Origin: Caulobacteraceae bacterium
Lineage (GTDB): Bacteria; Pseudomonadota; Alphaproteobacteria; Caulobacterales; Caulobacteraceae
Assembly (NCBI GenBank): GCA_947476555.1
Contig: CANJRI010000020.1
Coordinates: 1 to 36,004 of the forward strand
Direction: 5' to 3'
DNA length: 36,004 nucleotides
The notes under the pieces were generated by a model, which was not told the DNA's origin, did not search any database, and was given only the letters and a program-made list of their open reading frames with translations. Shown one piece after another: positions 14,823-30,047 of this stretch; within the stretch, counting starts at the first letter, position 1; each line of letters opens with the position of its first letter. The position numbers were made by a program, and so were the translations under genes.

Positions 14823-17690
14823 GTGAACACCTCTAGATTCGGTTTGTCCTTGCTGGGCGCCGCCTCGACCTTCGCAATGACGCTGGCGCTCGCAGGCGCC
14901 GCCCACGCCCAGGATGACGGGGCGGTCGAGGAAGTGGTCGTCACCGGCACCCGTCTGCCCGCCGGGCTCACCGCGCCGACGCCGGTGTCGACGGTCTCGG
15001 CGGCGAGCATCGCCCAGAAGGCGCCGGCCCAGATCATCGAAGCCCTCCATGACATCCCGGCCTTCAAGCAGGACCAGGGCGTCAGCCAGAGCCAGCGCAA
15101 CGGCTCGCCGCTCGCGACAGTGAACCTGCGCGGCCTCGGCAATGTCCGCACCCTGGTGCTCGTCAACGGCATGCGCCAGGTCGGCACCGAGACCCAGATC
15201 TTCGACACCAACCGGATCCCCTCGAACCTCGTCGAGCGGGTTGAGGTCGTGACCGGCGGCGCCTCCGCGGCCTACGGCTCGGACGCGGTCGCGGGCGCGG
15301 TGAACTTCCTGATCAACGACAGCCTGGAAGGCGGGCGCATGGACGCCCAGGTCGGCGCCACGCAAGTCGGCGACAACGAAAACTACACCCTCGGCTTCGC
15401 CTACGGCCGAAGCTTCGCGGACGGTCGTGGCCACTTCATCTTCGGCACTGAGTACTCGCGGGCGCAGGGGACGGGCACCATCTACTCCCGCGACTGGGGC
15501 CGGCTCGAGCCGGGCATCCTCGCGCCCTCGGCTGCTCAGCGCACGGCGATGGGGCTGCCGGCCAACCTCTACGCCAACGGCGTGGAGTTCCTGGCCACCG
15601 GCCTGAACCAAGGCATCATCACCTCGACCTCCCTGGCCGGCACCGCCTTCAACCCGGATGGCAGCTCCTACCAGGTCCCGGTCGGCCTGCAGATCGGCGC
15701 CCCGGCCGGCGGCAACGCCCTGTCCAACCTGATGATCGGCACCGGCAACTACGGCCTGACCGCGCTTGGCACCTTCTACCTCGCCATGCCGCTGAAGCGT
15801 TCGGCCACCATGGCGCGCGCGACCTTTGACATCACCGACAGCGTCTCCGCCTTCGCCGATTTCAGCTACACCTATAACTACGGCAAGGGGATCACCGGCC
15901 ACTCGCAGATCCCGAACGGCATCATGTCGAGCTTCGTGGTCCTGGCCTCGAACCCCTACATCCCGGCCGATGTCCGCGCCCGGATGACCGCCGCCGGCAT
16001 CACCCAGTTCAACCTCGGCCTGCTCCCGGTCGCCGTCGCCGGCAACAGCCAGGGCAACACGGGCTTCGAACAGGACAACGCCGCCTGGACCCAGCAGACC
16101 AACGTCGGCCTGCGCGGCGAGATCGGCGAAACCTGGAAGTGGGACGCCTCCTGGTCCCACGGCTGGTACCACAACGCCCGCCGCTACCATCAGCTGCTCA
16201 ACTCCGCGAACCTGGCCGCGGCCACCTATGCGATCGCCGGCCCGAACGGCCAGCCGATCTGCGGCCCCGTGGCCACCAACCCCAACGTGAACGCCACCAA
16301 CCGTGCGCTCATTCTGGACGGTTGCTCGCCGATGAACCCGTTCGTGATGTCCCAGTCGCCGGAAGCGATCCGCTACATCAGCACGCCCACCCGCGGAACC
16401 ACCAAGAACCGGCAGGACAGCTTCGCCGTCAACATCTCCGGCTCGCTGTTCGACCTGTGGGCCGGCCCCGTCGTCGTGGCGGCGGGCGGCGAATACCGCA
16501 AGGACAAGCTCAGCAACGTTGGCGAAGGCATGGACGCCCGGTCGTTCGCCACCGGCGGCACCACCACCTACTCCGGCGCCCGTGACGTGAAGGAAGGCTA
16601 TCTGGAAATCGGCGTGCCGCTGCTGCGCGACGCGCCCTTCGCCCAGGCTCTGGACTTCAACGCCGCCGCCCGCCGCACCAGCTATGAACTCAGCGGCGCC
16701 GTCACGACCTACAAGGTGGGCGCCACCTGGGACGTGATGGACGGCCTCCGCTTCCGCGCGACCCAGTCGCGCGACATCCGGGCGCCGAACCTCAACGAGC
16801 TGTTCCTCGTCGGCAACCCGGGCACCAACCAGGGCATCCGCAACCCCTTCAACGGGCAGGTCGGCCCGCTGCAGGTCCGCAACAGCGGCAATCGCGATCT
16901 GACGCCTGAAATCGCCCAGACCTTCACCGGCGGGGTGGTGCTGCGTCCGACCTTGCCCGTGCTGGAGCGGTTCACCGTCACCGCCGACTACTACTGGATC
17001 AAGATCAAGGACGTGATCGCCTCGGTGAGCGGCGCGGAGACCCTGAACCGCTGTTTCGCCGGCGTTCAGAGCTACTGCAGCGCCATCACCTTCGACAACT
17101 CCGGCTACGGCATCTCGATCGTCGAAACCCGCGTCTACAACCAGAATCAGCTGCGGGCGAAGGGCGTCGACCTCGACATCGGCTTCGACGTCCCCACCGA
17201 AGAGATCGGCGTGCCGGGCAGCCTGCAGATCCACGCCCTGGGCGGCTACCAGCCGACGCTCACCACGGTCGATGGTGCGGGCATCTCGCTCAACACAGCC
17301 GGCTCGTCGCTGGGCGTGCCGGAATGGCACTGGGTGTTCAACTTCGACTACTCGATCGGGAACCTGAAGACGCAGCTGCAGGCCAACTACTTCAACGAGG
17401 TCCTGTCGAACCCGTCCTTCATCGGGCCTGATGATCCGCGCTACGAGGCCATCAAGACCACGGCTTCCAACACCGTGAACAAGAACCTGTTCCCGTCGAT
17501 GGTTTACTGGAACCTGACGGCTCAGTACCAGATCAACGACAACTTCCAGGTCTTTGGGGTGGTCAACAACCTGCTCGACAAGCAGCCGCCGGATCTTGCC
17601 ATGATCGGCATGACTGGGGTCGATGGGCGGTTCAACCCCTATGATCCGCTCGGGCGCGCCTTCCGGATCGGCGTGCGCGGCAACTTCTAA
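14823..17690 (+). CDS. TonB-dependent outer-membrane receptor
   Basis: A 955-residue outer-membrane transporter importing a bulky substrate with energy from TonB-ExbB-ExbD. It starts at GTG 14823 with a signal peptide ending AGAAHA-QD. The TonB box EEVVVTGTR lies at residues 36-44, then the plug domain with LRGLGNVRTLVLVNGMR and the RVEVVTGGASAAYGSDAVAG block. The long barrel follows, finishing with NNLLDKQPP and the C-terminal aromatic NF needed for outer-membrane insertion. The size and NG.R plug motif resemble the large Caulobacterales/sphingomonad receptors for sugars or aromatics; the ligand is not readable. A hairpin follows, so it may be transcribed apart from the downstream redox genes, but it could deliver their substrate. 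Confidence 0.93.
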   Translation: MNTSRFGLSLLGAASTFAMTLALAGAAHAQDDGAVEEVVVTGTRLPAGLTAPTPVSTVSAASIAQKAPAQIIEALHDIPAFKQDQGVSQSQRNGSPLATVNLRGLGNVRTLVLVNGMRQVGTETQIFDTNRIPSNLVERVEVVTGGASAAYGSDAVAGAVNFLINDSLEGGRMDAQVGATQVGDNENYTLGFAYGRSFADGRGHFIFGTEYSRAQGTGTIYSRDWGRLEPGILAPSAAQRTAMGLPANLYANGVEFLATGLNQGIITSTSLAGTAFNPDGSSYQVPVGLQIGAPAGGNALSNLMIGTGNYGLTALGTFYLAMPLKRSATMARATFDITDSVSAFADFSYTYNYGKGITGHSQIPNGIMSSFVVLASNPYIPADVRARMTAAGITQFNLGLLPVAVAGNSQGNTGFEQDNAAWTQQTNVGLRGEIGETWKWDASWSHGWYHNARRYHQLLNSANLAAATYAIAGPNGQPICGPVATNPNVNATNRALILDGCSPMNPFVMSQSPEAIRYISTPTRGTTKNRQDSFAVNISGSLFDLWAGPVVVAAGGEYRKDKLSNVGEGMDARSFATGGTTTYSGARDVKEGYLEIGVPLLRDAPFAQALDFNAAARRTSYELSGAVTTYKVGATWDVMDGLRFRATQSRDIRAPNLNELFLVGNPGTNQGIRNPFNGQVGPLQVRNSGNRDLTPEIAQTFTGGVVLRPTLPVLERFTVTADYYWIKIKDVIASVSGAETLNRCFAGVQSYCSAITFDNSGYGISIVETRVYNQNQLRAKGVDLDIGFDVPTEEIGVPGSLQIHALGGYQPTLTTVDGAGISLNTAGSSLGVPEWHWVFNFDYSIGNLKTQLQANYFNEVLSNPSFIGPDDPRYEAIKTTASNTVNKNLFPSMVYWNLTAQYQINDNFQVFGVVNNLLDKQPPDLAMIGMTGVDGRFNPYDPLGRAFRIGVRGNF

Positions 17691-17918: not shown

Positions 17919-19118
17919 ATGGCGGATCGGCGCGCATTTCTTCAGTATCTGGCGGCCAGTCCCCTACTGGCGGGCCTTCCCACGGCCGACCTGTTTGCGC
18001 AGGAAGGGGCCAGGCTCGCCAAGGCCTCGGACGCGCTCGATGTTTTCGACTTCGAGGCCATGGCCAGGCAGGTGACGCCGCCGGCCCACTGGGGATATCT
18101 GAGTTCGGGCGTCGAGGGCGACGCGACCCTCAGAACCAACAGCGAAGCCTTCAATCGCTTCCATCTGCGTACGCGGCGTTTCGTCGATGTCAGCCACATG
18201 GACATGAGCGTCGATCTGCTGGGTCAGAAATTCAGCTCGCCGATCATATTGTGCCCGGTCAGCAGCCTGGGGGCGTTCCACCCGGACGGCGAGGTTGGCG
18301 CCGCGCTCGCCGCGAAGAACCGTGGCCAGTTGCAGGTGCTGTCGACGCAAGCGACCCGCAGCGTCGAGGACGTCATCAAGGGACGTGGCGCGCCGGTATG
18401 GTTCCAGCTCTACACGACCGATAGTTTCGCCGTCACGACGAAGCTGTTGCAGCGCGCCGAGCGGGCGGGATGTACGGCGGTGGCGATCACGGCGGACCTG
18501 CCCGCCGGACGCAATCCCATCACGCAGACCCGCTTCCAGCGCCAGGACACCCGCAATTGCGTGTCCTGCCATGGACCGGCTGGGCCGGGCGGCAACGGCA
18601 ACGTGGTGTCCTCGAAACCGATGTTTGCGGGCATCGACGCCACAGGCGTTCGCCTGCAGTCCGCGGCGCTGACCTGGGATTTCATCGGCAAGGTCCGGGC
18701 CGTGACGAAGATGAAAGTCCTCATCAAGGGCATCGACGATCCCGATGACGCGAAGCTGGCGATCGCCAACGGCGTCGATGGCATCTTCCTGTCGAACCAC
18801 GGCGGCCGGGCGACGGAAACCGGCCGTTCCACGCTCGAGGCCCTGCCGGAGGTGGTCGCGGCGGTGAGAGGGCGGGTTCCGGTGATCGTCGATGGCGGTT
18901 TCCGCCGGGGGACCGATGTCTTCAAGGCGCTGGCCTTGGGCGCCACCGCCGTGGGCATTGGCCGTCCTTACGTGTGGGGGCTGGCCTCCTTCGGCGAACA
19001 GGGCGTGGATCGCGTGCTCGAGATGCTGAACAACGAGCTGCGCCTGGCGATGGTTGGCGCTGGGGCGCGTACGCTCAAGGAGATTTCCCGCGCTTCGCTG
19101 ATCGCTGCGCGGGGATAG
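17919..19118 (+). CDS. Tat-exported FMN-dependent alpha-hydroxyacid dehydrogenase with an embedded CxxCH motif
   Basis: A 399-residue member of the lactate/glycolate/mandelate dehydrogenase family, oxidising a 2-hydroxyacid to a 2-ketoacid. ATG 17919 follows GGAG (17911-17914) and opens a twin-arginine signal (RRAFLQ, residues 4-9, then a hydrophobic stretch ending near FAQ). By alignment from memory to glycolate oxidase, the active site is complete: Tyr60, Tyr165, Asp193, Lys270, His294, Arg297 (SNHGGRATE). Unusually, the loop after Asp193 holds CVSCHGPAGPGG (Cys214, Cys217, His218), the pattern of a c-type heme site, though no separate cytochrome domain is present. Heme attachment is inference; a structural or metal site is possible. 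It is followed after 8 bp by the ThDP enzyme gene, then a cytochrome c gene, which suggests electron export to cytochrome c. Confidence 0.9.
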   Translation: MADRRAFLQYLAASPLLAGLPTADLFAQEGARLAKASDALDVFDFEAMARQVTPPAHWGYLSSGVEGDATLRTNSEAFNRFHLRTRRFVDVSHMDMSVDLLGQKFSSPIILCPVSSLGAFHPDGEVGAALAAKNRGQLQVLSTQATRSVEDVIKGRGAPVWFQLYTTDSFAVTTKLLQRAERAGCTAVAITADLPAGRNPITQTRFQRQDTRNCVSCHGPAGPGGNGNVVSSKPMFAGIDATGVRLQSAALTWDFIGKVRAVTKMKVLIKGIDDPDDAKLAIANGVDGIFLSNHGGRATETGRSTLEALPEVVAAVRGRVPVIVDGGFRRGTDVFKALALGATAVGIGRPYVWGLASFGEQGVDRVLEMLNNELRLAMVGAGARTLKEISRASLIAARG

Positions 19119-19126
19119 GATCAGGC

Positions 19127-21058
19127 ATGTCGGATTCTGACGGATTTTCTTCCGAGCGGCGGAAGTTCTTCAAGGTCGCCGCCGCGACCGGCGCCCTGGC
19201 GGCGGCGCAGGCCGCGACCCCGGCGGCGGCGCAAACAGCCGCGCAGCCGGCCGGCGCGCAAACCGCCGGCGGCCCGTCGGCGCAGGTGAAGACCGAAGGC
19301 CGCTGTGGCTCCGACTACATGGTCGATGTCCTGAAGACGCTGGGCTTCGAATACGTCTGCGCCAATCCGGGATCGAGTTTTCGCGGCCTGCACGAATCTC
19401 TCATCAACTACGGCGGCAATTCGAAGCCCGAGCTGATCACCTGCCTGCACGAGGAATCGTCGGTGGCGATGGGGCACGGCTACTTCAAGGCCGAGCTCAA
19501 GCCGATGGCCGTGATGGCGCACGGCACCGTCGGCGTTCAGCACGCCTCCATGGCCCTCTACAACGCCTGGTGCGACCGCGTGCCGGTGTACCTGATCCTG
19601 GGCAACACCTTTGACGCCACGATGCGCGCGCCGGGCGTTGAATGGGTCCACAGCGTGCAGGACGCGGCGATGCCCGTCCGCGACTACACCAAGTGGGACG
19701 ACATGCCGATGTCGTTGCAGCACTTCGGCGAGTCCGCGGTGCGCGCGTACAAGACCGCCATGACGCCGCCGACGGCGCCCACGGTGATCGTCGCCGACAG
19801 CGAGCTGCAAGAGCGGCCGATCCACACCGATCGGCCGTTGACGATCCCCAAGCTCAGCCTGACAGCGCCGCCGCAAGCCGACTCGGGCGGCATCGCCGAG
19901 CTCGCGAAGATGCTGGTGGCGGCGGAACAGCCCTTGTTCGTGGCTGACCGGCTGGCGCGCACGCCGGCGGGGATGACCTCCCTCGTCACCCTGGCCGAAC
20001 TGCTGCAGGCGGGCGTGATCAGCTCATTGCCCAACACCCTTCCGCCGATCGCGGCGGGGCGCATGAACTTCCCCACACGTCACCCCCTCAACCAGACATT
20101 CCGGTCCGTTGCGGCGCTCGGCGCCGCCGATGTCGTTGTCGGGCTGGAGATCGCCAACTTCTACGGCGCTGTGAACAACTTCATCGACCAGGAAGAGCGG
20201 ACAGAACGGCGTATCGTCAGGGCGAACGCCAAGCTTGCGACGATCAGCGCCACGGAGCTGATGCAGAAGGCGAACTATCAGGACTTCCAGCGATACACGC
20301 CGGTGGATCTGGCGCTCGCGGGTGACGCCGAGGCGTCCCTGCCCCTGCTGATCGAAGCGGTCCGCCGCGAACTGAACGTCAACCGCCGAGAGGCGATCGA
20401 GGTGCGCGGCAAAGCGCTGGCTGGAGCCAGCGGCACGGCGCGCGAGCGCTTCCGGCAGGACGCCCTGTACGCGTGGGACGCCTCGCCCATCAGCACGGCC
20501 CGACTCGCGGCGGAAATCTGGGAAGCGGTGCGCACCGAGGACTGGGCGCTGGTCAACGGCAATCTGAGCGGCTGGCCGTTGCGCCTGTGGGATTTCACCA
20601 AGCATTACCAGTATCTTGGCGTCTCCGGCGGCTCAGGCATCGGGTACGGCTTGCCGGCCGCCATCGGCGCCGCGCTGGCCAACCGCAAACACGGCCGCCT
20701 TTCCGTGAACATTCAGAACGACGGCGACATGATGTACGCGCCCGGGGTGCTCTGGACGGCGGCGCACCACAAGATCCCGGTGCTGACCGTGCTCCACAAC
20801 AACCGATCGTACCACGAGGAAGTCATGCACATTCAGCGCATGGGCAATCGCCGCAATCGTGGAGTGGACCGCGCCAAGATCGGCAACGAGATCGATAATC
20901 CGGCGATCGACTACGCCATGCTTGCGAAAAGCATGGGCTGGTACGCCGAAGGCCCGATCAAGCGTCCCGGCGATCTCGCCGGCGCACTGAAGCGTGCGAT
21001 CGCGGTGGTGAAGCGGGGCGAACCCGCCCTGGTCGATGTCTGGACGCAGCCGCGATGA
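19127..21058 (+). CDS. Tat-exported thiamine-diphosphate enzyme (benzoylformate decarboxylase/acetolactate synthase family)
   Basis: A 643-residue protein. ATG 19127 follows AGGA and starts a twin-arginine signal (ERRKFFK, residues 10-16, then an Ala-rich stretch to about residue 36). The N-terminal pyrimidine domain shows ANPGSS (79-84), the cofactor-activating Glu109 in LHEES, and His132 in AHG, matching Ser26, Glu47 and His70 of benzoylformate decarboxylase by my alignment. The C-terminal PP domain has NDGD (531-534) and Asn558-Asn559, the ThDP/Mg motif with the usual first Gly replaced by Asn. It would decarboxylate or ligate a 2-ketoacid, probably the product of the FMN enzyme upstream. 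A ThDP enzyme outside the cytoplasm is unusual: the cofactor must be bound before Tat export. Substrate unknown. Confidence 0.9.
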   Translation: MSDSDGFSSERRKFFKVAAATGALAAAQAATPAAAQTAAQPAGAQTAGGPSAQVKTEGRCGSDYMVDVLKTLGFEYVCANPGSSFRGLHESLINYGGNSKPELITCLHEESSVAMGHGYFKAELKPMAVMAHGTVGVQHASMALYNAWCDRVPVYLILGNTFDATMRAPGVEWVHSVQDAAMPVRDYTKWDDMPMSLQHFGESAVRAYKTAMTPPTAPTVIVADSELQERPIHTDRPLTIPKLSLTAPPQADSGGIAELAKMLVAAEQPLFVADRLARTPAGMTSLVTLAELLQAGVISSLPNTLPPIAAGRMNFPTRHPLNQTFRSVAALGAADVVVGLEIANFYGAVNNFIDQEERTERRIVRANAKLATISATELMQKANYQDFQRYTPVDLALAGDAEASLPLLIEAVRRELNVNRREAIEVRGKALAGASGTARERFRQDALYAWDASPISTARLAAEIWEAVRTEDWALVNGNLSGWPLRLWDFTKHYQYLGVSGGSGIGYGLPAAIGAALANRKHGRLSVNIQNDGDMMYAPGVLWTAAHHKIPVLTVLHNNRSYHEEVMHIQRMGNRRNRGVDRAKIGNEIDNPAIDYAMLAKSMGWYAEGPIKRPGDLAGALKRAIAVVKRGEPALVDVWTQPR

Positions 21059-21402
21059 AGCGGGTTTGCAGCCTCGTCATGGCCGGCCTGCTGGTGGGGT
21101 CGGCGGGCCTCGCGGCCGAACCCACGCCGGCGGCGGGCGACGCCAAGGTCGGCCGCGAGACTTTTCTGAAATCCGGTTGCGATCAATGCCATGGCCGCGA
21201 GGGCCAGGGTTCGCCGACCAGCGGCCCGAAGCTGGGGCCATCGCCGCCGCCCCTTGCAGCGTTCACGGCCTTCGTCCGCAGGCCACCGCAACAGATGCCG
21301 CCCTACGGCCCCTTGATCCTGAGCGACGGCGAACTCGCGGATATCCATGCCTACCTAAGCAGCCGGCCCCCGCCGCCGGCGAACGCCAAGCTGCCGCCGT
21401 GA
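21055..21402 (+). CDS. Periplasmic monoheme cytochrome c
   Basis: A 115-residue protein with a Sec signal peptide (MKRVCSLVMAGLLVGSAGLA-A). The heme site is CDQCH (Cys42, Cys45, His46), followed by GREGQGSP. A distal Met81 in QQMPPYGP is the likely sixth ligand, and LSDGELADIHAYLSS is the class I C-terminal helix. The tail is Pro-rich. Its ATG overlaps the TGA of the ThDP enzyme gene (21055-21058), so the two are translationally coupled. It is probably the electron acceptor for the FMN dehydrogenase two genes upstream, passing electrons to the terminal oxidase; that link is inferred from context. Confidence 0.92.
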   Translation: MKRVCSLVMAGLLVGSAGLAAEPTPAAGDAKVGRETFLKSGCDQCHGREGQGSPTSGPKLGPSPPPLAAFTAFVRRPPQQMPPYGPLILSDGELADIHAYLSSRPPPPANAKLPP

Positions 21403-21410
21403 GGTCAGGA

Positions 21411-22238
21411 ATGAATGCGTCTTTCGCGATCAGGCTTGGACTGTCGGTGATCGCATTGTGTGGCGCGCTGCTGGGGAGCGCCCAGGCCGCTACGCCGGCG
21501 CCGCGGGAAGCCGTCCGCGCGCTGGCGCCCTCAGGAACGCTTCGGGCCGCCATCAATCTGGGCAACGCGGTGTTGGCGCAGACGACAGCGAGCGGTGAAC
21601 TGCGCGGCGTCACCGTGGATCTGGCGCGCGAACTCGGCGCTCGCCTGGGTGTGCCCGTCGTCCTCGTGCCGTTCCAGGCGGCCGGGGAGGTGTTCGCCGC
21701 GCTGAAGGAGGATCGCTGGGATGTCGCCTTCATGGCGGTCGAGCCGGCGCGCGCCACCGACGTCGACTTCTCCTCGCCCTACGCGCTGATCGAGGCGACC
21801 TACATGGTCCGCAAGGATTCGCCGCTCCGCGAGGTTGCGGAGGTCGATCGTCCGGGAGTCCGCATCGCGGTCGGTCGCGGATCGGCCTATGACCTCTACC
21901 TCACCCGCACCATCAAGAACGCGACCCTGGTGCGCGCGGCGACCGGAGGCGGGACGGCGATGATCGATCTGTTCATGGCCGACAAGCTCGAAGCGGTGGC
22001 CGGCGTTCGCCAGCAGCTTGCCGCGTTCGCCGCCACCAACCCGGACATGCGGATCATGCAGGGTCGGTTCCAGGACGTCCCCCAGGCCGTCGGCATCCCC
22101 AAGGGACGCGACGCCGGGGCCGCCTACGTCAGCGCGTTCGTCGAAGAGGCGAAGGCGTCCGGCTTCGTCCGCAAGTCGCTCGCCGCCAGCGGACAGGGCG
22201 ACGTCGTGGTCGCGCCTCCCGCGGGCAGATCGAAATAG
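21411..22238 (+). CDS. Periplasmic substrate-binding protein, family 3 (amino-acid-binding/MxaJ-XoxJ fold)
   Basis: A 275-residue protein with a Sec signal peptide ending GSAQA-AT. The mature part follows the SBP_bac_3 pattern: LRAAINLGNAVLA, GVTVDLARELGARLGVPVVLV, WDVAFMAVEPARATDVDFSSPY and IAVGRGSAYDLYLTRTI, ending with QAVGIPKGRDAGAAYV. No ABC permease or ATPase accompanies it. Instead it lies 8 bp after the cytochrome c gene. In lanthanide/PQQ methanol dehydrogenase operons a protein of this fold (MxaJ/XoxJ) accompanies the cytochrome without acting in transport, so a chaperone or activator role for the exported redox enzymes is possible. Ordinary ligand sensing or uptake through a distant permease is the alternative. 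Confidence 0.85.
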   Translation: MNASFAIRLGLSVIALCGALLGSAQAATPAPREAVRALAPSGTLRAAINLGNAVLAQTTASGELRGVTVDLARELGARLGVPVVLVPFQAAGEVFAALKEDRWDVAFMAVEPARATDVDFSSPYALIEATYMVRKDSPLREVAEVDRPGVRIAVGRGSAYDLYLTRTIKNATLVRAATGGGTAMIDLFMADKLEAVAGVRQQLAAFAATNPDMRIMQGRFQDVPQAVGIPKGRDAGAAYVSAFVEEAKASGFVRKSLAASGQGDVVVAPPAGRSK

Positions 22239-22354: not shown

Positions 22355-22942
22355 ATGCATCGACGCACTCTCCTCACCCTCGGACTCTGCGCTTCGGCGG
22401 GCCTGGTCTCCGCCGCGCTGGCGCAGCCCACTGGCGGGGAGGCCCTTTTCGACGGCCGGGATCTGGACGCTTGGACGGCGCTGGGGGACGCGAACTGGCG
22501 GATCGTGGACGGCGTGGCGCAGGCCGATACCGGCGTCGGCCATCTGGTCTCGAAGGAGACTTTCGCGAACTTCCATCTGCGGGCCGAGGTGTGGATCGAT
22601 CCTCAGGCGAACAGCGGCGTTTTCATCAGGGCCGCCAATCCCGGCGAGGTGAACGCGCAGAACGCCTACGAGGTAAACCTCTTCGACGAGCGGCCCGATC
22701 CCACCTACGGCACCGGCGCCATCGTGGACCTCGCCAAGGTTGATCCAATGCCCAGGGCGGCTGGCAAATGGAACGTGCTGGAGATCCGCGCTCAGGGCGA
22801 CCGGTTCGACGTCTGGCTCAACGGCGTGCAGACGGTGAACGGCGCACGGGACGCCAAGCGCGCCAGCGGGCGCATCAGCCTGCAGCGTGGGGCGGGAATG
22901 GGCGTGGTGAAGTTCCGGAAGGTGGACGTTCGCCCGTTGTAA
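22355..22942 (+). CDS. Exported DUF1080 (3-keto-disaccharide hydrolase domain) protein
   Basis: A 195-residue protein with a signal peptide bearing RR (MHRRTLLTLGLCASAG...SAALAQ). The mature part is one concanavalin-like beta sandwich: LFDGRDLDAWTALGDANWRIVDG, then LVSKETFANFHLRAEVWIDP, NSGVFIRAANPG, YEVNLFDERP, KWNVLEIRAQGDRFDVWLNG and the closing GRISLQRG...VKFRKVDVRPL. This is the DUF1080 pattern, some members of which cleave 3-keto-glycosides. It sits 117 bp after the binding-protein gene and 36 bp before an exported hydrolase. ATG 22355 is chosen because it starts the signal peptide. Substrate unknown. Confidence 0.88.
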   Translation: MHRRTLLTLGLCASAGLVSAALAQPTGGEALFDGRDLDAWTALGDANWRIVDGVAQADTGVGHLVSKETFANFHLRAEVWIDPQANSGVFIRAANPGEVNAQNAYEVNLFDERPDPTYGTGAIVDLAKVDPMPRAAGKWNVLEIRAQGDRFDVWLNGVQTVNGARDAKRASGRISLQRGAGMGVVKFRKVDVRPL

Positions 22943-28628: not shown

Positions 28629-30047
28629 ATGAGCGATTCGGCGCCCCTTCTCGACATCCCCCAAGCGCCCGCCCCGGCAGGCGCCCAGGCGGAGTGGTTC
28701 GAGGGCGCCGGCGGGGCAAAACTGCGCGCCGCGCTGTTCAGGCCGGCGGGACAGGTTCGCGGCTCGGTGGTGCTGTCCGGCGGTCGCACCGAGCCCATCG
28801 AAAAATACTACGAGGTGATCTCGGATTTCATGGATCGCGGCTTCGTGGTGCTGGCGCATGACTGGCGTGGCCAGGGCCTGTCGTCGCGCGAACTGCCGGA
28901 CCGTCGCAAGGGTCACGCGAAGGGCTACCGAAGTTTCCTCGAGGACTTCCGCCGCCTGCTCGACAGCTACGAGGACCGGTTGCCGAAGCCCTGGATCGCG
29001 GTCGGCCATTCGATGGGCGGATGCCTGACCCTGCTCGCCATGGCGCATGGCGAGCGCCGCTTCGCCGGCGCCGCGCTGTCGGCTCCCATGCTGGGGATCA
29101 AGGTCGGCAGGAGCCTGTCGGCCGTACGGGTGTTAACCCGCATGAACCTGCTGCTGGGCCGGGCGCATCGCTTCACGCCGGGCGGCGGCCTGCGCGACGA
29201 GGACACCTTCGAAGGCAACCCACTCACCCACGATCGACGCCGGTTCGAGCGCCACCGCGCTCAGATCGCGGCGAACCCCGACCTGGCGTTGGGCGCCCCC
29301 ACCTGGGGATGGCTCGACTTCGCGCTCAGCGCCACCGCCTTCCTCGCCAAGCCCGAACGGCTCCGCGGCGTCACTGCGCCCGTGGAGATTGTCTCGGCCG
29401 GTGAGGATGCCCTGGTGGACAATGCCGCCCAAGCGGCGGCGGCCCGAAACCTGCCGCAAGGACGCCTGGTGAGCGTCCCCGGCGCCTTCCACGAAATTCT
29501 TATGGAGAGAGACGACATGCGAAACATCTTCACGAAGGTCTTTGACGCGCTGGCCGGCAAGACAGCGCCCAAGCCCGCTCCTCGCCCGGCGATGGCCGCC
29601 GCGCCGGCGCCTGTGGCAAAGCCCGCACCGACGCCGGCTCCGGCTCCGGCCAAGGTGGCCGCCGCGCCGAAGCCGGCCGCCGCCAAGAAGCCTGCGGCGA
29701 AGAAGCCGGCGGCAAAGAAGCCTGCCGCGAAGAAGGCCGCGGCAAAGCCGGCCGCCGCCAAGAAGTCCGCTACGGCCAAGAAGGCGGTCGCGAAGAAGCC
29801 TGCCGCCAAGAAGCCGGCGGCCAAGAAGCCCGCCGCCAAAAAAGCCACGGCGAAGCCCGCCACGGTGAAGAAGGCTCCGGTCGCGAAGAAGCCGGTCGCC
29901 AAGAAGCCCGCGGCCAAGAAGCCGGCGGCCAAAAAGCCCGCCGCCAAGAAAGCCACGGCCAAGCCAGCCGCGGTGAAGAAGGCTCCGGTCGCGAAGAAGC
30001 CTGCCGCCAAGAAGGCGCCCGCTAGGAAGTCCGCGCCCAAGAAGTGA
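28629..30047 (+). CDS. Lysophospholipase-like alpha/beta hydrolase fused to a histone-H1-like Lys/Ala/Pro tail
   Basis: A 472-residue two-part protein. Residues 20-305 form a monoacylglycerol-lipase/lysophospholipase-type hydrolase: LAHDWRGQGLSSR, nucleophile Ser128 in VGHSMGG, acid Asp260 in SAGEDALVD, and His288 in GAFHEIL. Residues 311-472 are a low-complexity basic tail, first Pro/Ala-rich and then ten PAAKK units with KKAPVAKK spacers, like histone H1 and the DNA-binding PAKKA tails of PhaM-type proteins. The tail encodes two nearly identical 33-residue blocks. I infer nucleoid or polyanion binding by the tail. No signal peptide is visible, so it is cytoplasmic. It probably forms an operon with the SCP2 gene. 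Confidence 0.9.
   Translation: MSDSAPLLDIPQAPAPAGAQAEWFEGAGGAKLRAALFRPAGQVRGSVVLSGGRTEPIEKYYEVISDFMDRGFVVLAHDWRGQGLSSRELPDRRKGHAKGYRSFLEDFRRLLDSYEDRLPKPWIAVGHSMGGCLTLLAMAHGERRFAGAALSAPMLGIKVGRSLSAVRVLTRMNLLLGRAHRFTPGGGLRDEDTFEGNPLTHDRRRFERHRAQIAANPDLALGAPTWGWLDFALSATAFLAKPERLRGVTAPVEIVSAGEDALVDNAAQAAAARNLPQGRLVSVPGAFHEILMERDDMRNIFTKVFDALAGKTAPKPAPRPAMAAAPAPVAKPAPTPAPAPAKVAAAPKPAAAKKPAAKKPAAKKPAAKKAAAKPAAAKKSATAKKAVAKKPAAKKPAAKKPAAKKATAKPATVKKAPVAKKPVAKKPAAKKPAAKKPAAKKATAKPAAVKKAPVAKKPAAKKAPARKSAPKK
29793..29999 (+). repeat. Two 99-bp direct repeats in the Lys/Ala/Pro tail
   Basis: 29793-29891 and 29901-29999 encode nearly the same 33 residues (KKPAAKK three times, then ATAKPA(T/A)VKKAPVAKK), separated by 9 bp. 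The copies differ mainly at third codon positions, so the repeat is old enough to have drifted, or was kept by selection on the protein. Confidence 0.8.

What the first reader, a model, noticed from the sequence alone, without database searches (positions are those of the whole stretch)
17919..22238. Candidate periplasmic hydroxyacid oxidation/ketoacid decarboxylation system
Four tightly packed genes encode a Tat-exported FMN alpha-hydroxyacid dehydrogenase, a Tat-exported ThDP enzyme of the benzoylformate-decarboxylase family, a monoheme cytochrome c and a family-3 binding protein (gaps 8 bp, -4 bp, 8 bp). The first two are the enzyme pair of the mandelate pathway (MdlB and MdlC: hydroxyacid to ketoacid to aldehyde plus CO2), but that pathway is cytoplasmic or inner-membrane in pseudomonads. 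Moving both outside and adding a dedicated cytochrome suggests a respiratory system that oxidises and decarboxylates hydroxyacids in the periplasm. Signals, motifs and spacing are seen; pathway and substrate are inference.
Basis: partly seen in the sequence, partly recalled or inferred. Interest (0 to 1): 0.82.

Follow-up and report, generated by a model that had tools for sequence, protein, structure and literature searches.

The report
Exported acid-oxidising enzymes with heme partners
This stretch of DNA encodes two exported enzymes that probably oxidise small organic acids outside the inner membrane, one carrying its own predicted heme-attachment site and the other inherited together with a small heme protein, an arrangement that we did not find described.

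Summary
Two things change the picture. First, the FMN hydroxyacid dehydrogenase carries a CxxCH heme c motif (aa 214-218) in loop 4; it is present in 29 of 29 members of one clade with twin-arginine signals and in 0 of 11 other FMN rows examined. Second, the separate cytochrome c belongs with the ThDP enzyme: a cytochrome gene directly follows ThDP in 11 of 11 loci of the exported ThDP clade and in 0 of 46 loci of its cytoplasmic-looking relatives. FMN-ThDP adjacency was seen only in this window; elsewhere the genes sit apart, yet 5 of 13 other FMN-heme genomes tested hold both (about two lineages), against 2 of about 1,050 background genomes. Best reading: a periplasmic respiratory route in which an FMN enzyme with a built-in heme makes the ketoacid, and a ThDP enzyme passes electrons from the ketoacid to its own cytochrome c. 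Export, heme binding, electron route, oxidative chemistry and substrates are inferred, not shown. The mandelate-pathway label is not supported by the membership tests made.

The parts
17919..19118 (+). FMN-dependent 2-hydroxyacid dehydrogenase, twin-arginine N-terminus (RR at aa 4-5), built-in CxxCH
   Evidence: PF01070 362 bits; catalytic columns Y165, D193, K270, H294, R297 kept; AF2 model (mean pLDDT 74) matches glycolate oxidases, best E 2.1e-32
18558..18572 (+). CVSCH, predicted covalent heme c site in loop 4 (aa 214-218)
   Evidence: C214, C217, H218 kept 29 of 29 in the clade, CxxCH absent in 11 of 11 other FMN rows
18621..18623 (+). Met235 of KPMF, candidate sixth heme ligand
   Evidence: Met in 26 of 29 clade members, so not strictly required
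19127..21058 (+). ThDP-dependent 2-oxoacid enzyme, twin-arginine N-terminus (RR at aa 11-12)
   Evidence: TPP_enzyme N and C domains; S83 and E109 align with BFD S26 and E47 (BFD numbers recalled); D532-G533 and N558-N559 kept
21055..21402 (+). small class I cytochrome c with a Sec-type signal (by eye); CDQCH at 21178-21192; partner of the ThDP enzyme
   Evidence: Cytochrome_CBB3 39 bits; homologue directly after ThDP in 11 of 11 clade loci
21411..22238 (+). family-3 solute-binding protein without transporter genes beside it; possible activator or substrate carrier
   Evidence: SBP_bac_3 62.5 bits; third gene of the same trio in two other genomes, L089 and L101

Best explanation
A periplasmic (extracytoplasmic) respiratory operon with two electron-donating steps. 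Step 1: the exported FMN dehydrogenase oxidises an L-2-hydroxyacid to the 2-oxoacid; electrons pass from FMN to a heme c covalently held by CxxCH in loop 4 of the same chain, which does the job of the b5 domain of flavocytochrome b2, and from there to the c-type cytochrome pool. Step 2: the exported ThDP enzyme decarboxylates the 2-oxoacid, and its dedicated cytochrome c takes the electrons of the ThDP-bound intermediate, directly or through a cofactor not visible in the sequence, so that the product is the acid one carbon shorter plus CO2 rather than the aldehyde. The binding protein assists the ThDP-cytochrome pair, as XoxJ is suggested to assist XoxF. Shown: gene order, motifs, conservation and co-inheritance. 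Inferred: export, heme attachment, which partner takes the electrons, oxidative chemistry, that the two steps share a pathway, substrate.
For: FMN clade: CxxCH 29 of 29, one clade 100/99, next to a twin-arginine sister (L117) without it; between aa 206 and 252 only C214, C217 and H218 are kept in 29 of 29. Own genome has the heme lyase gene CcmF/NrfE, 581 bits over a 569 cut-off. ThDP: cytochrome gene -23 to +11 bp after the stop in 11 of 11 clade loci (for L004 the start is the alternative one, same locus as L031), with CxxCH 113-152 nt after the stop; no such gene in 24 sister-group rows nor in 22 more rows fetched as a check. Clade supported 98/96 and 96 in the larger tree; it is spread over chromosomes and plasmids with unlike neighbours. 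In L089 and L101 the ThDP-cytochrome-SBP trio is followed by a cytochrome b561 gene. FMN-heme genomes hold the ThDP-cytochrome pair in 5 of 13, background 2 of about 1,050.
Against: Pfam shows only ThDP domains in the ThDP enzyme; whether it binds FAD was not tested, and we found no paper on a ThDP enzyme that reduces cytochrome c directly. A cytoplasmic-looking relative (Acidovorax, L145) is followed, with a 4-bp overlap, by an aldehyde dehydrogenase gene, which suggests that the ancestor was a plain, aldehyde-forming decarboxylase. 8 of 13 FMN-heme genomes lack the ThDP-cytochrome pair, and both genomes in which the pair was found without looking through FMN, G087 and G802, lack FMN-heme, as do the two plasmid records (chromosomes not searched). 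The 11 ThDP loci are one clade, so export plus cytochrome is one origin, kept; the five co-occurring genomes are about two lineages (2 of 10 against 2 of about 1,050, p 0.0005). Three distant ThDP rows with twin arginines have no cytochrome. Heme c is normally attached to unfolded chains, whereas Tat exports folded ones (recalled). Met235 is missing in 3 of 29.
Confidence: 0.42

Rival explanations
1. One reading: but relocated: the FMN enzyme passes electrons to the separate cytochrome c and the ThDP enzyme decarboxylates without oxidation, giving an aldehyde.
For: Nearest solved relatives of the ThDP enzyme by sequence are benzoylformate decarboxylases, and S83/E109 fit them; a cytoplasmic-looking relative on an Acidovorax plasmid sits before an aldehyde dehydrogenase gene.
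Against: The cytochrome follows the ThDP gene in 10 loci that have no FMN relative beside them, and the FMN enzyme has its own CxxCH. A non-redox decarboxylase has no evident need of a cytochrome kept across that divergence.
Confidence: 0.28
2. The ThDP-cytochrome-SBP trio is one unit and the FMN enzyme another; their adjacency in the window is an accident of rearrangement and they share no pathway.
For: Adjacency seen only here; in G1025, G1027, G1028, G1030 and G1032 the two lie apart; 8 of 13 FMN-heme genomes have no such ThDP gene, and G087 and G802 have the pair without FMN-heme.
Against: 8-bp spacing and common strand in the window; enrichment of co-occurrence in about two lineages besides the window; hydroxyacid to ketoacid chemistry fits.
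Confidence: 0.22
3. The CxxCH of loop 4 holds a disulfide or a metal instead of heme, and the FMN enzyme reduces a soluble cytochrome or a quinone.
For: The loop is short for a heme domain; Met235 not universal; Tat exports folded chains (recalled).
Against: C-x-x-C-H kept 29 of 29 with the x residues free; the clade looks exported, and heme c is made outside; own genome has CcmF.
Confidence: 0.2
4. The ThDP enzyme is a periplasmic carboligase or lyase and the cytochrome serves another enzyme.
For: Of the 25 NCBIfam families listed many are acetolactate synthases, glyoxylate carboligase and lyases, all below cut-off.
Against: 11 of 11 cytochrome pairing; I saw no other redox gene common to the loci.
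Confidence: 0.1

Closest known systems
Flavocytochrome b2 (L-lactate:cytochrome c oxidoreductase, EC 1.1.2.3)
   Same: FMN_dh barrel with an attached heme, cytochrome c as acceptor (PMC8491902, passages)
   Different: No cytochrome b5 domain here; a c-type motif in a loop-4 stretch of about 40 residues; twin-arginine N-terminus
(S)-Mandelate dehydrogenase MdlB / benzoylformate decarboxylase MdlC (mandelate pathway)
   Same: Pair of FMN hydroxyacid dehydrogenase and ThDP ketoacid enzyme; an extended loop 4 is also the mark of MdlB (PMC8491902, passages)
   Different: Exported by the look of the N-termini; loop 4 carries CxxCH; ThDP enzyme scores 154 against a 493 cut-off for BFD and comes with a cytochrome c
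xoxF-xoxG-xoxJ modules
   Same: Order enzyme, dedicated cytochrome c, periplasmic binding protein (PMC7391723, passages)
   Different: The enzyme is a ThDP-domain protein, not a PQQ enzyme; no quinoprotein-associated SBP model (name recalled) is among the six families listed for the SBP
Pyruvate oxidase PoxB (ThDP + FAD, quinone; recalled)
   Same: ThDP enzyme that feeds the respiratory chain
   Different: PoxB is cytoplasmic and uses FAD (recalled); here exported, with a cytochrome c; FAD binding not tested
[quoted passage not shown]
   Same: Periplasmic 2-hydroxyacid oxidation with cytochrome c as acceptor (title, start of abstract, passages)
   Different: Zn/FAD enzyme of the D-2-hydroxyglutarate dehydrogenase type; my search of its main text found no 'FMN' or 'heme'

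Membership tests
FMN-dependent 2-hydroxyacid oxidase/dehydrogenase (PF01070) | Profile match and fold | tested here: met
   362 bits vs 24.9; AF2 model to 1gox E 3.5e-32, 40% id, TM 0.71/0.81
FMN-dependent 2-hydroxyacid oxidase/dehydrogenase (PF01070) | Catalytic Tyr, Asp, Lys, His, Arg (GOX Y129, D157, K230, H254, R257; numbers recalled) | tested here: met
   Y165, D193, K270 in 29 of 29; H294, R297 in 28 of 28 readable clade rows; alignment to 1al7
Flavocytochrome b2 | N-terminal cytochrome b5 domain | tested here: not met
   No cytochrome b5 family among the five Pfam matches of P0001
(S)-Mandelate dehydrogenase | Membrane-binding (hydrophobic) loop 4 | tested here: not met
   Loop 4 here is a polar stretch with CxxCH, judged by eye
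c-type cytochrome (for the FMN enzyme) | CxxCH in a chain with an export signal, host with heme lyase | tested here: met
   Motif 29 of 29, RR pair 28 of 28 readable, CcmF in own genome
c-type cytochrome (for the FMN enzyme) | Covalently bound heme | not testable with these tools
   Needs protein
Benzoylformate decarboxylase (MdlC) | NCBIfam equivalog score | tested here: not met
   NF005485 154.2 vs 493
Benzoylformate decarboxylase (MdlC) | Active-site Ser26, Glu47, His70, His281 (numbers recalled) | tested here: inconclusive
   Ser and Glu align and are invariant in 11 of 11; a His of the window aligns with His70 but its column is not among the invariant ones of the clade; the His281 place could not be settled from the alignments printed
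XoxF-G-J-type module | Enzyme + cytochrome c + binding protein in one row | tested here: met
   Window, L089, L101; 8 other clade loci have no relative of the SBP beside the pair
XoxF-G-J-type module | PQQ dehydrogenase | tested here: not met
   The enzyme has ThDP domains only
Cyclohexadienyl dehydratase (for the SBP) | Catalytic residues of the SBP-derived dehydratase | tested here: inconclusive
   Best solved relatives are reconstructed ancestral CDT proteins, 52 bits; catalytic residues were not mapped

The most novel reading that the evidence does not exclude
Two new kinds of redox partner in one operon: an FMN hydroxyacid dehydrogenase that has turned its loop 4 into a heme c site (a one-chain flavocytochrome c of the glycolate oxidase family, found here in Pseudomonadota, Acidobacteriota and one Marinimicrobia MAG), and a periplasmic ThDP enzyme that oxidises its ThDP-bound carbanion directly with a cytochrome c, with no FAD, Fe-S cluster or lipoate (absence of FAD not tested): a 2-oxoacid:cytochrome c oxidoreductase (decarboxylating).
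Probability: 0.3. Interest if true: 0.88.

Novelty: new variant of a known kind. Interest (0 to 1): 0.72.

Why it matters
Oxidation and decarboxylation of organic acids are mostly described as cytoplasmic chemistry. An exported FMN enzyme with its own heme, and an exported ThDP enzyme tied to a cytochrome, would let bacteria draw electrons from lactate- or glycolate-like acids without importing them. A ThDP enzyme that reduces a heme directly would be new enzymology, and a heme c held by a single loop of a TIM barrel would be a very small natural electron outlet, of use for biosensors.

Tried and rejected
Mandelate pathway proper: membership not met. Binding protein as cyclohexadienyl dehydratase (prephenate to phenylpyruvate would have supplied a ketoacid): only a 52-bit match to reconstructed ancestral proteins; not pursued. 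Binding protein as part of an ABC importer: I saw no permease or ATPase among the neighbouring frames of the window. Sulfonate chemistry: genes that look like a sulfate-type ABC transporter run divergently beside ThDP-cytochrome in L090, L091, L092 (by eye); not pursued. Exported aldolase link: an HpcH/HpaI protein follows FMN-heme in L029 (32.6 bits, cut-off 25); the similar-looking gene upstream of ThDP in L071 gave no Pfam hit in the frame sent, so the link is not claimed. An earlier count said that L032 and L071 lack the cytochrome; two searches showed that my gene caller had missed it and both have one. The loose RR pattern also rang in several sister-group rows (L072, L074, L059, L061, L066, L104 and two of L073); in the alignment the two Arg columns are gaps in 20 of 24 sister rows. 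Rows left out of the 11 and the 24: ten, namely L001 (cut copy of the window), a partial second row of L053, and eight distant ones (L006, L007, L008, L010, L012, L014, L079, L080); none of the ten shows a downstream CxxCH, though L001 ends at the gene. L079, L008 and L010 have twin-arginine N-termini and no cytochrome: export alone does not bring one. Of the 43 plasmid records with a ThDP match only H1, H2, H3, H6 and H7 were opened. ThDP structure was not predicted: only the window's own ThDP sequence was eligible, and a single-sequence fold would not be trustworthy. Promoter-like sites: 0 found; terminator-like 4, shuffles 3.4. The label '2/9' printed is a slip; the table used was 2 of 10.

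Paper searches: nothing listed reports CxxCH in a glycolate-oxidase-family protein or a ThDP enzyme paired with cytochrome c. Lists were capped (for example 15 of 3,544, 15 of 231, 12 of 81, 15 of 31), and the library holds open-licence PMC papers only, so this is weak evidence of absence. PMC8491902, PMC12294151 and PMC7391723 were seen as passages; all others as search listings with the start of their abstracts.

Full report
What is there. The window holds four same-strand genes, FMN dehydrogenase 17919-19118, ThDP enzyme 19127-21058, cytochrome c 21055-21402 and family-3 binding protein 21411-22238, with gaps of 8, -4 and 8 bp. Each matches its family over the curated cut-off. A TonB-dependent receptor (14823-17690) ends 228 bp upstream and a DUF1080-type protein (22355-22942, PF06439) starts 116 bp downstream. 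A receptor relative (30% identical) lies 3.6 kb downstream of the FMN gene in L027 and a weaker one (24%) in L032; no relative of the DUF1080 protein rang in the loci compared.

The FMN enzyme has a heme motif of its own. Residues 214-218 read CVSCH, in the stretch after the fourth strand of the barrel (loop 4). Forty distinct FMN rows were compared, from the window, a genome scan (8 loci), the window's phylum (8 of 398 genomes at E 1e-70, two of them without CxxCH), the class of G1027 (1 of 229 at E 1e-85, itself), the phylum of the acidobacterial locus L029 (14 of 247 genomes, 17 loci, 16 with CxxCH), a plasmid and lower-scoring paralogues. Copies of one locus were counted once (L121 is L029; L069 and L042 are one locus, Methylobacterium bullatum). 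Twenty-nine carry CxxCH in loop 4 and form one clade, support 100/99 (the tree included the motif's own columns). In this clade C214, C217 and H218 are kept in 29 of 29 while the residues between them vary; the twin-arginine pair is kept in the 28 rows that reach the N-terminus. The sister row L117 has the twin arginine but a short loop without CxxCH, and the ten other rows, which include the window genome's own paralogue L002, lack CxxCH. So export seems to have come first and the heme motif second. The catalytic residues are intact. AlphaFold2 with nine sequences gives the expected barrel (mean pLDDT 74.1); residues 1-4, 33-64 and 194-227, the last holding the motif, are below 50, so the model says nothing about where a heme would sit. 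Foldseek's best matches are glycolate oxidases. The genome has the CcmF/NrfE heme lyase. A methionine (M235, in KPMF) could be the sixth ligand but is missing in 3 of 29. A separate CxxCH frame lies within 400 nt of the gene in 3 of 29 clade loci (L069 and L112 on the same strand, L039 on the other) and in 1 of 11 other rows (L002), so the FMN clade does not track a separate cytochrome.

The cytochrome belongs to the ThDP enzyme. I examined 45 ThDP rows. Eleven loci (window, L101, L089, L071, L004/L031, L067, L032, L068, L090, L091, L092; two of them from one genome, G087) form one clade, support 98/96, all with a twin-arginine N-terminus (columns 11-12 invariant). In 11 of 11 a CxxCH frame starts 113-152 nt after the ThDP stop; the proteins are homologous, GCxxCHG...MPxY, and the genes are -23 to +11 bp apart (for L004, which has no ATG upstream of the motif, an alternative start gives -4). 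Neighbours differ: aromatic dioxygenase genes near L067, ABC and other genes elsewhere. In two close relatives, L089 and L101, the same trio ThDP-cytochrome-SBP is followed by a cytochrome b561 gene, which again points to electron transfer. S83 of the ThDP enzyme, which aligns with benzoylformate decarboxylase Ser26, is invariant in the exported clade but Ala in 22 of 24 sister rows. Against an oxidative role: on an Acidovorax plasmid a cytoplasmic-looking relative is followed, with a 4-bp overlap, by an aldehyde dehydrogenase gene. In the exported clade the cytochrome takes that place, which fits either a switch to oxidative decarboxylation or something else done with the aldehyde.

The FMN-ThDP pair is not a conserved operon. 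No other FMN locus held (L023-L030, L039, L042-L047, L069, L107-L123) has a ThDP relative in its flanks of 1.5 to 8 kb. In the nearest genome (G1025) the FMN gene, 70% identical, and the ThDP gene, 76% identical, lie on different contigs with their own neighbours. Yet co-occurrence is above background: of 13 FMN-heme genomes tested other than the window's, G1025, G1027, G1028, G1030 and G1032 hold the exported ThDP-cytochrome pair, against 2 of about 1,050 genomes (G087 of 298, G802 of 384, none of 368; a few genomes were in two draws). Fisher p is 2e-9 as counted and 5e-4 when the five are collapsed to two lineages. In the other direction G087 and G802, found through ThDP, have no FMN-heme gene, and the 13 further acidobacterial FMN-heme genomes were not tested for ThDP. 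The eight without include the five genomes of the window's own class (G325, G438, G445 of one genus, apparently Methylobacterium; G391; G579), so the FMN enzyme also works without this partner.

How it most likely works. From the anatomy: a hydroxyacid reaches the periplasm, the FMN enzyme oxidises it, and its own heme c empties the flavin one electron at a time, as the b5 domain does in flavocytochrome b2. The ketoacid is taken by the ThDP enzyme. A decarboxylase of the benzoylformate type would release an aldehyde and need no redox partner; the strict pairing with a cytochrome therefore argues for oxidative decarboxylation, with the cytochrome oxidising the ThDP-bound carbanion in two steps, directly or through a cofactor such as FAD, which was not tested. 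That last step is inference by gene pairing and by analogy with enzyme-cytochrome-binding protein modules such as xoxF-xoxG-xoxJ (PMC7391723, passages: loss of xoxG or xoxJ mirrors loss of XoxF; XoxJ may activate XoxF). Substrates cannot be told from sequence.

What is new. Nine searches of open-licence papers (capped lists) showed neither arrangement. PMC8491902 (passages) surveys FMN_dh proteins and mentions b5-heme and long-loop-4 variants; the passages seen do not mention CxxCH. I rate it a new variant of known enzyme families, with a bolder reading (direct ThDP to heme c transfer) that the evidence does not exclude.

Noticed in passing
L117 1480-2631 (G1572): Twin-arginine FMN protein, sister to all CxxCH members, with short loop 4 and no CxxCH: a possible pre-heme stage.
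   Followed up: partly
L089 11797-12507; L101 7840-8526: Cytochrome b561 gene directly after the ThDP-cytochrome-SBP trio in both close relatives.
   Followed up: partly
L067 9749-10369 (Caballeronia plasmid p3): The cytochrome paired with ThDP has two CxxCH and two Cytochrome_CBB3 domains there.
   Followed up: no
L145 1926-5233 (Acidovorax plasmid): A relative of the ThDP enzyme without twin arginine overlaps an aldehyde dehydrogenase gene by 4 bp.
   Followed up: no
L090, L091, L092: Genes that look like a sulfate-type ABC transporter run divergently from the ThDP-cytochrome pair in three MAGs (by eye).
   Followed up: no
L032 3845-7825: Genes that look like a three-subunit molybdenum hydroxylase lie downstream of the second ThDP-cytochrome locus of G087 (by eye).
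   Followed up: no
L008, L010, L079: A second, distant group of ThDP enzymes with twin-arginine N-termini and no cytochrome within 700 nt.
   Followed up: partly
L029 6173-7222: HpcH/HpaI-family protein with an apparent signal peptide next to an acidobacterial FMN-heme gene.
   Followed up: no
L027 12840-15992: A relative (30%) of the window's TonB-dependent receptor lies 3.6 kb downstream of the FMN-heme gene.
   Followed up: no
window 14823-17690: TonB-dependent receptor on the same strand upstream of the four genes; possible substrate uptake route.
   Followed up: no
window 28629-30047: Alpha/beta hydrolase with a C-terminal tail matching histone H1-like HC2 (55 bits, cut-off 40).
   Followed up: no
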